This document shows, piece by piece, positions 4,998 through 9,102 of a DNA stretch of 9,102 nucleotides. The first letter of the stretch is position 1; each line of letters starts with the position of its first letter. The position numbers were made by a program, and so were the translations under genes. Source of the DNA: Clostridia bacterium (lineage in GTDB: Bacteria; Bacillota_A; Clostridia; UMGS1883; HGM11501); contig JAFXHP010000060.1 of assembly GCA_017536285.1 (NCBI GenBank), forward strand, positions 1 through 9,102, in the 5' to 3' direction. Under the pieces are notes generated by a model. It saw only the letters and a list, made by a program, of their open reading frames with translations, ran no database searches and was not told the DNA's origin.

Positions 4998-5023
4998 AAA
5001 AAAGCTGCTACGGCAGCTTTTTT
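4998..5023 (+). terminator. Perfect hairpin terminator between tagO and the sirtuin fusion gene
   Basis: An 11-bp perfect stem (4998-5008 with 5013-5023) has a 4-nt TACG loop, six A on the left arm and six T on the right arm. It begins 1 nt after the tagO stop and ends 14 nt before the next ATG. The downstream ribosome binding site AAGGAGA is at 5027-5033. No convincing promoter fits between the hairpin and that gene. Confidence 0.85.
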
Positions 5024-5037
5024 CATAAGGAGATACT

Positions 5038-6594
5038 ATGGACAAGTTTCAAAGACTTATTAACAGCTGTAATTATATAGTGTTTTTCGGAGGAGCCGGT
5101 GTCAGTACCGAATCCGGTCTTAAGGATTTCAGGAGCAAGGACGGACTTTATAACGAAAAGAGCGATGTTCCCCCGGAAATGATTTTAAGCCACGGCTATT
5201 TTGAAAAGCACACCGAAGAATTTTTTGACTTTTATAAAAATAAAATGATAGATCTTGATATACTGCCCAATAAGGCACATAAAAAGCTTGCCGAATTGGA
5301 AAAATCAGGAAAACTTAAGGCTGTAATAACTCAGAATATTGACGGACTTCATCAGGCTGCCGGAAGCGTAAATGTATTGGAGCTTCACGGAAGTGTCCAC
5401 AGAAACTACTGCACTGAGTGCAACAAGTTTTACGATGCAAAATTTATAAAAGAATCAAAGGGAGTTCCTGTCTGCTCCTGCGGTGGAATTATAAAACCGG
5501 ATGTTGTGCTCTACGATGAAGCATTATCGGATGATGTGATATCGAAGGCGGTAGCTCATATTTCTAAAGCAGACTTACTTATAATTGCGGGCACCAGCCT
5601 TATGGTTTATCCTGCGGCAGGATTGCTCAGGTATTTCCATGGGCAGTACCTTGCACTTATAAATAAAGAAGAGACAAGCGTTGACAGGCTTGCAAATTAT
5701 GTATCACATGAAAAAGTTGGGGAGGTTTTGGGAAGAATGGCAGTAGGAGTTACAATTAAAAATGAATTTATAGAAATGAAGTTCACTTCAAAGGGGGCAC
5801 AGTGCGAGAGCCTTATGTTCAATGGAGAAGAACAGCTCTGGCAGGATAACGGAAGACTTATATGGGAAGACCATTCGCCTGTGCTTTTCCCCATATGCTC
5901 AAGTCTTAGGGACGGCAAATACCATTATGACGGTAAATGGTACGAAATGCCTCAGCACGGCTTTTCCAAAGGGGCGATTTTCGAGGTTGAAGAGCTAGCA
6001 GGCGACAGAGTTGTATTCTGCCTTAAGGAAAATGATGAAACCTTGAAAATGTATCCATTCCTTTTCTCGTTCCGTGTGGAATATAAGCTTTCGGGCAATA
6101 AGGTCATTACAACCTACAGTGTTGAAAACAGGGATGGAAAAATTCTTCCTGCATCCTTCGGAAGTCATGAGGCTTACGCACTTCCCGACGGAATTGAAAA
6201 TTATGAAATTGTGTTCCCTGAAGACGATTTTCTTATGCATCAGGTTATGGACGGAAGACTTGTTAACGGAGAGACAAAAAAGATTGAACTTGAAGGAAGG
6301 ACTCTGCCACTTACACGTGGCGTATTCGGAACGGATTCTTATGTAATAAAAGACCATAAGTCAAGAAGTGTTACCTTACGAAGAAAGACGGGCGGAAGAG
6401 AAATTAAGATAGATTTTCCCGGAATTGACTATCTTGTCCTCTGGCATAAGGAAGATGCCGATTATGTTTGCATAGAGCCATGGTGCAGTTTTATTGACCG
6501 TACAGATTCTGACGGAGACATCACAAAGCGTGAGGGAATTATTCTTGTAGAACCCGGAAAAACAGTTGAAAAAACGCACACAATAACATTCTGA
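5038..6594 (+). CDS. Fusion protein: CobB-type sirtuin plus LacX-like aldose 1-epimerase
   Basis: 518 codons without interruption. Residues 1-233 form a full-length Sir2/CobB NAD-dependent protein deacylase: GAGVSTESGLKDFR (19-32), TQNIDGLH, catalytic His117 in ELHGSVHR, a zinc site made of CTEC and CSC, KPDVVLYDE and GTSLMVYPAAGL. The second zinc pair is Cys-x-Cys rather than Cys-x-x-Cys. Residues 234-518 are a full-length mutarotase of the LacX branch: IKNEFIEMKFTSKGA, FPICSSLRDGKY, MPQHGFSK (His307), GSHEAY (His377), IEPWCSF (Glu480) and C-terminal EPGKTVEKTHTITF. Sirtuins transfer acyl groups from lysine to NAD, giving nicotinamide and O-acyl-ADP-ribose. Mutarotases interconvert sugar anomers. 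Both domains look intact and cytosolic. I know of no standard fusion of this kind. Start: ATG with AAGGAGA. An assembly or sequencing artefact seems unlikely because both domains are complete and in frame. Confidence 0.88.
   Translation: MDKFQRLINSCNYIVFFGGAGVSTESGLKDFRSKDGLYNEKSDVPPEMILSHGYFEKHTEEFFDFYKNKMIDLDILPNKAHKKLAELEKSGKLKAVITQNIDGLHQAAGSVNVLELHGSVHRNYCTECNKFYDAKFIKESKGVPVCSCGGIIKPDVVLYDEALSDDVISKAVAHISKADLLIIAGTSLMVYPAAGLLRYFHGQYLALINKEETSVDRLANYVSHEKVGEVLGRMAVGVTIKNEFIEMKFTSKGAQCESLMFNGEEQLWQDNGRLIWEDHSPVLFPICSSLRDGKYHYDGKWYEMPQHGFSKGAIFEVEELAGDRVVFCLKENDETLKMYPFLFSFRVEYKLSGNKVITTYSVENRDGKILPASFGSHEAYALPDGIENYEIVFPEDDFLMHQVMDGRLVNGETKKIELEGRTLPLTRGVFGTDSYVIKDHKSRSVTLRRKTGGREIKIDFPGIDYLVLWHKEDADYVCIEPWCSFIDRTDSDGDITKREGIILVEPGKTVEKTHTITF
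5719..5757 (+). promoter_or_regulatory. Shine-Dalgarno-like sites at the domain junction (possible internal start)
   Basis: GGGGAGG (5719-5725) lies 11 nt before an in-frame ATG (5737, Met234). AGGAG (5745-5749) lies 5 nt before an ATT codon (5755, Ile240), exactly where stand-alone mutarotases begin. These may allow separate mutarotase translation or be relics of an ancestral gene boundary. Purine-rich codons alone could also produce them. Confidence 0.35.
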
Positions 6595-6606
6595 TTACGA
6601 AAAAAT

Positions 6607-6646
6607 GCAGAGCGAGAAGTCACTTTCGCTCTGCGAGTTTATTTTT
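6607..6646 (+). terminator. Hairpin terminator after the fusion gene
   Basis: GCAGAGCGA (6607-6615) pairs perfectly with TCGCTCTGC (6626-6634) around a 10-nt loop. It follows an A-run and precedes a T-rich tail (6638-6646), 12 nt after the stop codon. It separates the fusion gene from the arginine operon. Confidence 0.85.
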
Positions 6647-6791: not shown

Positions 6792-7724
6792 ATGTGCGAC
6801 AAAAAAACTAAAATATTTATAGACGGCTCTGCAGGAACAACGGGCCTTCGTATATATGAAAGGCTCGGGGCGATGGAGGATATCGAATTAATCCGTTTGC
6901 CCGAGGAGGAAAGGAAAAGTCCCGAAGCGAGAAAAAAGGCTATTAACGAAAGTGATGTAACCTTTTTGTGTCTTCCCGACGATGCGGCAAGAGAGTCCGT
7001 TTCCTTGGCGGGAGATGATGTTATTATAATTGATACATCAACGGCCCACAGAACAGAAAGTGATTTTGCCTACGGTTTTCCGGAGCTTTCGGAAGAACAC
7101 CGTGAAAAGATTAAAAATTCCAAAAGAATTGCGGTTCCGGGCTGTCATGCAGGAGGATTTATTGCACTTTTATATCCTTTGATAGAAAATGGATTTTTAT
7201 CGCCCGATGCACATATTTCTTGCCATTCATTGACGGGATATTCAGGCGGCGGAAAGAAAATGATTGCAGAGTATGAAGCGGGGGAAAATCAGCTTCTTAA
7301 AGGTCCGAGACAGTACGGTCTTTCGCAGAATCATAAGCACCTTAAGGAAATGGTTAAAATAACAGGACTTTCCGTTGCTCCCGTATTCTGCCCGATAGTC
7401 GGAGATTTTTACAGCGGTATGGAAGTGACGGTTCCTCTTTTCGCAAGCGATTTATTAAAGGGCGGAATAGAGGATATAAAAAATCTGTACAAAGAAAAAT
7501 ACAATTCTGACATTGTGAAATATGTTGAGGATGACGAGGAAGGCTTCTTGTCCTCAGTTAAATATTCGGGTAAGGACTTTATGAGGGTTGCTGTTTACGG
7601 AAATGAGGATAGAATAATCCTTGTTGCAAGATATGATAATTTAGGTAAGGGTGCATCAGGTGCGGCAATTCAGTGTATGAATATCGCCATCGGAAAAGAC
7701 GAAAAAAGCTCACTTGAGTTATAA
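6792..7724 (+). CDS. argC: N-acetyl-gamma-glutamyl-phosphate reductase, type 2
   Basis: A 310-residue cytosolic enzyme that reduces N-acetylglutamyl phosphate with NADPH to N-acetylglutamate semialdehyde, the third step of ornithine/arginine synthesis. The N-terminus KIFIDGSAGTTGLRIYERL (Rossmann loop GSAGTTG at residues 12-18) and the catalytic-cysteine motif PGCHAGGF (Cys118), with SLTGYSGGGKKMI downstream, identify the shorter type 2 branch (about 310 residues) rather than type 1 (about 345). The ATG at 6792 is preferred: GGTGA lies 5 nt upstream. The GTG at 6783, adding three residues, has no ribosome binding site. The weak site may limit expression relative to argJ. First gene of the argC-argJ-argB operon; 12 nt separate it from argJ. 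Confidence 0.93.
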   Translation: MCDKKTKIFIDGSAGTTGLRIYERLGAMEDIELIRLPEEERKSPEARKKAINESDVTFLCLPDDAARESVSLAGDDVIIIDTSTAHRTESDFAYGFPELSEEHREKIKNSKRIAVPGCHAGGFIALLYPLIENGFLSPDAHISCHSLTGYSGGGKKMIAEYEAGENQLLKGPRQYGLSQNHKHLKEMVKITGLSVAPVFCPIVGDFYSGMEVTVPLFASDLLKGGIEDIKNLYKEKYNSDIVKYVEDDEEGFLSSVKYSGKDFMRVAVYGNEDRIILVARYDNLGKGASGAAIQCMNIAIGKDEKSSLEL

Positions 7725-7736
7725 GGAGAAGAAAAA

Positions 7737-9102
<1,366 letters not shown>

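What the first reader, a model, noticed from the sequence alone, without database searches (positions are those of the whole stretch)
5038..6594. Sirtuin fused to an aldose 1-epimerase in one reading frame
Seen: one uninterrupted 518-codon frame with a complete CobB-like N-terminal half (GAG motif, QNID, His117, Cys zinc site) and a complete LacX-like C-terminal half (His307, His377, Glu480). Known: sirtuins make O-acyl-ADP-ribose, whose ribose has a free anomeric carbon; mutarotases act at anomeric carbons. Inference: the second domain may process an ADP-ribose-type product, or couple acylation state to sugar metabolism. Equally, it may be a simple co-expression fusion. I know of no described system built this way.
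Basis: partly seen in the sequence, partly recalled or inferred. Interest (0 to 1): 0.7.

Follow-up and report, generated by a model that had tools for sequence, protein, structure and literature searches.

The report
Sirtuin fused to a sugar mutarotase
In a small group of uncultured gut Clostridia, a protein-deacylating enzyme and a sugar-flipping enzyme that sit as two overlapping genes in a relative have become one protein, and both halves look functional, which hints that the two activities are useful together although nobody has tested why.

Summary
Window 5038-6594 (+) is one 518-codon frame: an intact CobB-type sirtuin joined without a linker to an intact LacX-type aldose 1-epimerase. 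It is not an assembly error: L001, a goat-colon Clostridia genome (94% identical, same gene order), and three protein clusters at 91, 64 and 63% identity are fused at the same point. In L002, from the same family, the two genes overlap by 8 nt; the fused genes differ by one 22-nt gap where L002 has the second gene's ribosome site and start codon and the first gene's stop codon. Both halves are under strong purifying selection against L001 (dN/dS 0.043 and 0.040). In another group of the class the two families are neighbours, in the opposite order, in 8 of 8 genomes with matches (3 more have none), 5 of 8 with a YhcH-family anomerase gene between them. The linkage looks functional, but what couples the activities is unknown. 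That the mutarotase handles the sirtuin's ADP-ribose product is unsupported so far, and fast spontaneous anomerisation of ADP-ribose speaks against it. New domain combination, rare, moderate interest.

The parts
5038..6594 (+). Fused gene, 518 aa: sirtuin plus LacX-type aldose 1-epimerase
   Evidence: same architecture in L001 and P0002-P0004
5038..5736 (+). Sirtuin half (residues 1-233); Pfam SIR2 at residues 19-192; NCBIfam NF001752 NAD-dependent protein deacylase 318.1 bits (cut-off 221)
5386..5388 (+). His117, expected catalytic His of the deacylase (role recalled)
   Evidence: invariant in 4 of 4 fused proteins aligned
5737..6591 (+). LacX-type mutarotase half (residues 234-518)
5956..5958 (+). 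His307, active-site His of the mutarotase (role recalled)
   Evidence: Present in 6 of 6 fused/linkedA, 8 of 8 linkedB and 44 of 44 other LacX rows
6166..6168 (+). His377, active-site His of the mutarotase (role recalled)
   Evidence: Present in 58 of 58 rows
6475..6477 (+). Glu480, active-site Glu of the mutarotase (role recalled)
   Evidence: Present in 58 of 58 rows
5737..5748 (+). Junction. Against the unfused pair of L002 the aligner puts one 22-nt gap between window 5747 and 5748; the 22 nt of L002 hold GGAG of its AAAGGAG site, the LacX ATG and the sirtuin TAA
5027..5032 (+). AAGGAG, likely ribosome-binding site, 5 nt before the ATG
   Evidence: Sequence; inference
4998..5023 (-). Terminator-like hairpin upstream, 11 pairs; listed on the - strand, but the stem ends in a run of T on either strand. 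Suggests that the gene is its own transcription unit
   Evidence: 6 terminator-like sites in the region, shuffles mean 1.7
6606..6635 (+). Terminator-like hairpin downstream (12 pairs), before argC
   Evidence: consensus match only

Best explanation
It is a genuine gene fusion that encodes one bifunctional protein: an NAD-dependent lysine deacylase tethered to a LacX-type sugar mutarotase. The ancestor most likely had the two as an overlapping gene pair, as L002 still does; a small deletion at the overlap put them in one frame. Shown: the frame, both domains, conservation of the fusion and junction, low dN/dS of both halves, and the overlapping pair in a relative. Inferred: the direction of the change; that each domain does its usual reaction on its own substrate; and that fusion fixes them in 1:1 amount and one place. 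I think the link is through carbohydrate metabolism: the mutarotase speeds conversion of a free sugar to the anomer that is metabolised, while the deacylase resets acylated metabolic enzymes in the same cell state. I do not think the product of one is passed to the other.
For: ORF and domains. Fusion in the window, L001, P0002, P0003 and P0004, down to 63% identity. Fused LacX halves form one clade (98/92) and join L002's LacX at 100/99. L002's pair overlaps by 8 nt, and the DNA alignment needs one 22-nt gap. dN/dS between window and L001 is 0.043 (sirtuin half) and 0.040 (LacX half), close to trpS at 0.028 and below four other neighbours at 0.075-0.18. Mutarotase catalytic residues are kept in 58 of 58 rows. 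Deacylase-type HG and Zn cysteines are kept. Terminator-like hairpins on both sides suggest a single-gene unit. The other LacX copy of G001 lies beside KduI/IolB, PfkB, class II aldolase and FGGY genes. In the second linkage, RecG and NagA follow in 8 of 8 genomes, and in G072 tpiA, gpmI and enolase lie upstream, with about 0.9 kb between enolase and LacX.
Against: No substrate is known for either half and no activity was measured; the carbohydrate link was not tested. The fusion is in one of the four held genomes of its family; one more has the pair and two have no sirtuin match. Outside two groups the genes are not neighbours. In one search, 15 of 99 genomes matched both halves: 1 fused, 4 adjacent, 10 with the genes on other contigs or at least 14 kb apart. 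Of 37 sirtuin loci (linkedB and fused loci not in this set) 36 lack a LacX within about 1.5 kb; of 43 LacX loci (the linkedB set not included except G045 as L062; some genes twice) 41 lack a nearby sirtuin. The fused genomes could therefore be keeping a harmless accident. dN/dS rests on one pair of genomes, with dS near 1.
Confidence: 0.55

Rival explanations
1. Neutral co-expression fusion: the deletion removed a stop and start codon without harm, and both enzymes keep unrelated jobs. The fusion itself has no function.
For: The overlapping pair makes fusion a one-step event. The fusion was seen in 1 of 391 class genomes and 1 of 4 family genomes. No shared product of the two reactions came up in the searches made.
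Against: The fusion persists over divergence down to 63% identity. The same two families are neighbours in a second group in 8 of 8 genomes with matches, which one accident does not explain, unless the linkage has one old origin, which was not ruled out.
Confidence: 0.25
2. The mutarotase domain (and, in the second linkage, YhcH too) acts on the sirtuin's own sugar product, O-acyl-ADP-ribose or ADP-ribose, speeding its anomerisation or ring opening before a hydrolase acts on it.
For: Sirtuins have a precedent for partners that act on their ADP-ribose chemistry: SirTM and a macrodomain are adjacent in bacteria and fused in fungi (PMC4518038, passages). YhcH is a shown anomerase for another sugar (PMC8141875, abstract and outline), and a YhcH-family gene sits between LacX and sirtuin in 5 of 8 linkedB genomes. 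ARH1 and ARH3 appear to hydrolyse alpha-anomeric products (PMC9738213, passages).
Against: ADP-ribose anomers are in fast equilibrium and cannot be isolated (PMC5473349, passages), so a catalyst seems unneeded. Structural relatives of the domain include GalM and a hexose-6-phosphate mutarotase. No ARH-type or macrodomain gene is among the seven other window genes tested; an alpha/beta hydrolase (BD-FAE) of unknown substrate lies four genes upstream.
Confidence: 0.12
3. The LacX domain is mainly a sugar sensor: sugar binding changes the sirtuin's activity or brings it to sugar enzymes.
For: Linker-free joining and a model with pTM 0.84 and mean pLDDT 89.8 over both domains suggest a fixed arrangement.
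Against: All three mutarotase catalytic residues are kept, which a mere sensor would not need. Predicted aligned error was not returned and only 5 of 26 rows of the alignment are fused proteins, so the packing is untested.
Confidence: 0.08

Closest known systems
CobB/Sir2 NAD-dependent protein deacylases (PF02146, NF001752)
   Same: Sirtuin half meets the Pfam and NCBIfam cut-offs and has the catalytic His and four Cys
   Different: Runs on into a mutarotase; apart from the three fusions, none of the SIR2 hits among the 120 listed carries PF01263
LacX-type aldose 1-epimerases (PF01263; solved relatives 3dcd, 3q1n)
   Same: Same fold and catalytic residues
   Different: The other 117 of the 120 listed hits show no SIR2 domain; I read nothing that settles the substrate of LacX proteins
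SirTM-macrodomain pairs and fungal Mfs1 fusions (class M sirtuins)
   Same: Sirtuin with a partner that is a neighbouring gene in some lineages and fused in others (PMC4518038, passages)
   Different: Partner is a mutarotase, not a macrodomain; the sirtuin keeps HG (class M has QG)
YhcH/NanQ anomerases (PF04074, TIGR00022)
   Same: A member lies between LacX and sirtuin in 5 of 8 linkedB genomes
   Different: Not seen beside the fused gene or in the L002 locus; the two tested score below the cut-off of the N-acetylneuraminate anomerase model (115.4 and 114.4 against 160 bits)

Membership tests
Sir2 NAD-dependent deacylase (CobB-like) | SIR2 domain above curated cut-off | tested here: met
   165.6 bits against 24; NF001752 318.1 against 221. 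The narrower CobB equivalog NF040867 is not reached (233.5 against 320)
Sir2 NAD-dependent deacylase (CobB-like) | Catalytic His in HG, QNID, and zinc cysteines | tested here: met
   His117-Gly118, QNID 99-102, Cys125/128/146/148 invariant in 4 of 4 fused proteins
Sir2 NAD-dependent deacylase (CobB-like) | NAD-dependent deacylation | not testable with these tools
   Needs enzyme assay
Class M sirtuin (SirTM) | Catalytic HG replaced by QG | tested here: not met
   HG present; definition from PMC4518038 passages
Class M sirtuin (SirTM) | Linked macrodomain | tested here: not met
   No macrodomain in the fused protein or among the seven other window genes tested
Aldose 1-epimerase, LacX type | Aldose_epim domain above curated cut-off | tested here: met
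   78.4 bits against 27
Aldose 1-epimerase, LacX type | Two active-site His and one Glu (recalled as catalytic) | tested here: met
   His307, His377, Glu480 in 58 of 58 LacX rows
Aldose 1-epimerase, LacX type | Mutarotase fold | tested here: met
Aldose 1-epimerase, LacX type | Mutarotation of an aldose | not testable with these tools
   Needs enzyme assay

The most novel reading that the evidence does not exclude
LacX (with YhcH in the second linkage) is a dedicated partner of these sirtuins that acts on the ribose of O-acyl-ADP-ribose or ADP-ribose. That would make an enzyme system for the anomeric or open form of a sirtuin product, found as a fusion, an overlapping pair and an operon.
Probability: 0.1. 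Interest if true: 0.8.

Novelty: new variant of a known kind. Interest (0 to 1): 0.45.

Why it matters
Both domains are old and common, but their union in one protein was not found described in the searches made. A fusion, an overlapping pair and a separate operon linkage give three natural versions to compare. If the link is functional, it ties protein deacylation directly to sugar anomer control, or reveals an enzyme that handles the sirtuin product. It is also a clear case of how an overlapping gene pair can become one gene.

Tried and rejected
Assembly error or lost stop codon: rejected, since the fusion recurs in L001 and in P0002-P0004. No reads were available to map.

Independent origin of the two linkages (Sir2-LacX and LacX-YhcH-Sir2): drawn apart in the sirtuin and LacX trees, but one clade was not rejected by the AU test (p 0.498 for the sirtuin and 0.941 for the LacX quick trees; p 0.453 for the careful LacX tree). 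For the LacX quick tree the held tree even scored 26.4 log-likelihood units higher, so that quick tree was poor. I therefore claim only that gene order differs, not that the linkage arose twice. P0200 was dropped before the careful tree because of its long branch.

Fusion of the second type (LacX first): none among the 120 listed of 1353 hits of a joined query; only the three known fusions appeared. Internal start for a free LacX: the Met at residue 234 is Ile in P0003 and Val in P0004; their DNA was not seen, and a Val codon can serve as a start, so this is weak. Anti-phage role: no PADLOC match. Structure: A5, a 92-row alignment, misplaced the LacX rows and was not used; A6 with 26 rows was used. 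Interface packing was not testable, as coordinates and predicted aligned error were not returned. A broad neighbour census failed in part: the class search listing was cut and at most 3 candidates per genome were scored. The phylum search with the L045 LacX matched 44 of 398 genomes and gave no new linkage among the 30 loci fetched.

Full report

Is the fusion real? In the protein database the search with the whole protein gave 1482 hits, of which 120 were listed; 3 of these 120 carry both domains (P0002, P0003, P0004). The search with the LacX half gave 1329 hits, and again the same 3 of 120 listed are fused. They are 518-520 aa and 91, 64 and 63% identical over the full length, with the junction at the same place and no linker. 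The one scan of genome contigs gave 6 loci, one of them fused: L001, a goat-colon Clostridia MAG (94% identical). There the order SpoIID, trpS, glycosyltransferase 4, fusion, argC, argJ is the same as in the window, at 84.8-93.3% DNA identity in two aligned stretches. So it is not an assembly error.

How it arose. L002, a Bacillota MAG whose genome falls in the same family, has the sirtuin (72% identical, 7280-8008) and LacX (57%, 8001-8858) as two genes that overlap by 8 nt in different frames. Aligned at the DNA level, the two fused genes compared (window and L001) show one 22-nt gap; the 22 nt of L002 hold GGAG of its AAAGGAG site, the LacX ATG and the sirtuin TAA. Twenty-two is not a multiple of three, so the loss also brings LacX into the sirtuin frame. 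The careful LacX tree puts the five fused halves in one clade (98/92) and L002 beside them (100/99). The sirtuin quick tree puts the same six together (SH-aLRT 99), though the fused five alone have only 57 there. That the separate pair is ancestral is inference from the rarity of the fusion.

Is it kept by selection? Between window and L001, dN/dS is 0.043 for the sirtuin half and 0.040 for the LacX half; trpS gives 0.028, argJ 0.075, the glycosyltransferase 0.083, SpoIID 0.12 and argC 0.18. This is one pair of genomes with dS near 1, so the values are rough. His307, His377 and Glu480 are present in 58 of 58 LacX rows aligned. Both enzymes are therefore probably active. Terminator-like hairpins lie on both sides (4998-5023 and 6606-6635), so the gene is probably transcribed alone; these are consensus matches only.

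How widespread is it? In a draw of 391 genomes of the class, only G001 (the genome of L001) shows a match over residues 1-518 in the listed rows; the list was cut at the weaker end and at most 3 candidates per genome were scored. The family and the order of these genomes each hold the same 4 genomes: G001 fused, G002 (L002) paired, G006 with only another LacX, G007 with no match. G001 and G002 each also carry a second, unlinked LacX at 41% identity; in G001 it lies in a cluster with KduI/IolB, PfkB, class II aldolase and FGGY kinase genes. The sirtuin-linked LacX is thus a separate copy.

A second linkage. One search (99 genomes) showed both halves matched in 15: 1 fused (G001), 4 with neighbouring genes (G002, G045, G072, G099), and 10 with the genes on other contigs or at least 14 kb apart. 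I then took relatives of G099 and of G045 (79 genomes in each call). The first 11 genomes listed are the same in both calls; 8 of the 11 match and 3 do not. In all 8, three of them the seeds, LacX and sirtuin are neighbours on one strand, LacX first. Reading these loci shows LacX, sirtuin, RecG and NagA in 8 of 8 (RecG as two frames in L045), with a YhcH-family gene between LacX and sirtuin and a phosphoribosyltransferase-like gene after RecG in the same 5 of 8 (families of some members). In G072, enolase, gpmI and tpiA lie upstream. Group membership is inferred from listing order, because the tool tells no kinship for these genomes; all 8 are in the class draw. Elsewhere the genes are apart: 1 of 37 sirtuin loci with about 1.5 kb on each side (less at contig ends; linkedB and fused loci not in this set) has a LacX, and 2 of 43 LacX loci, some of them the same gene fetched twice, have a sirtuin. 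Those positives are the G002 pair and the G045 locus. Whether the two linkages share one origin is open.

How it most likely works. I take it as a tethered pair of ordinary enzymes made in equal amounts, linked through sugar metabolism (inference; 0.55). It gains some colour from YhcH, an anomerase for sialic acid that supplies the open form (PMC8141875, abstract and outline). Against it stands the fast spontaneous equilibrium of ADP-ribose anomers (PMC5473349, passages). ARH1 and ARH3 appear to hydrolyse alpha-anomeric products (PMC9738213, passages), so anomers can matter in this chemistry. No ARH-type or macrodomain gene is among the seven other window genes tested; an alpha/beta hydrolase (BD-FAE, 635-1501) lies four genes upstream and its substrate is unknown.

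Novelty. Text searches for sirtuin with aldose 1-epimerase and fusion (1 paper, a proteomic analysis of mouse stem cells by its title, listing only), O-acetyl-ADP-ribose with mutarotase (0 papers) and a looser combination (118 papers, 10 listed, none of the 10 with the term aldose 1-epimerase) found no description. The library is open-access papers only. I rate it a new variant of a known kind: two known families in a new union.

Noticed in passing
L046, L047, L056, L058, L060 (and L045, L057, L059 without two genes): A tight cluster LacX - YhcH - sirtuin - RecG - phosphoribosyltransferase-like - NagA in one group of the class; YhcH and the phosphoribosyltransferase-like gene are both present in 5 of 8 and both absent in 3 of 8 genomes. 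Why a helicase sits with sugar genes and a sirtuin is unexplained.
   Followed up: partly
L048 3017-9014 and L049 2745-7641: The second LacX copy of both genomes lies in a similar cluster; in L048 with KduI/IolB, PfkB, class II aldolase and FGGY kinase genes, a likely sugar or inositol catabolic operon (L048 families tested, L049 judged by eye from the protein starts).
   Followed up: partly
window 5473-5481 (residues 146-148): The second zinc pair is CxC (Cys146, Cys148) rather than CxxC; the same shortening is seen in L002 and in the unfused relative P0005, so it is not tied to the fusion.
   Followed up: partly
window 7737-8957 against L001 9995-11215: argJ has a dS of only 0.19 between these two genomes against 0.84-1.23 for the six other gene pieces compared, which suggests recent exchange or another history for argJ; argC and SpoIID are only 75% identical in protein.
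   Followed up: no
L045 6521-7456 and 7538-8533: RecG appears as two frames in G045, while the other seven linkedB genomes have one long frame; a real break or an assembly fault.
   Followed up: no
P0256: A LacX relative at 45% identity to the L045 copy is labelled Treponema, so this LacX type may reach beyond Clostridia.
   Followed up: no
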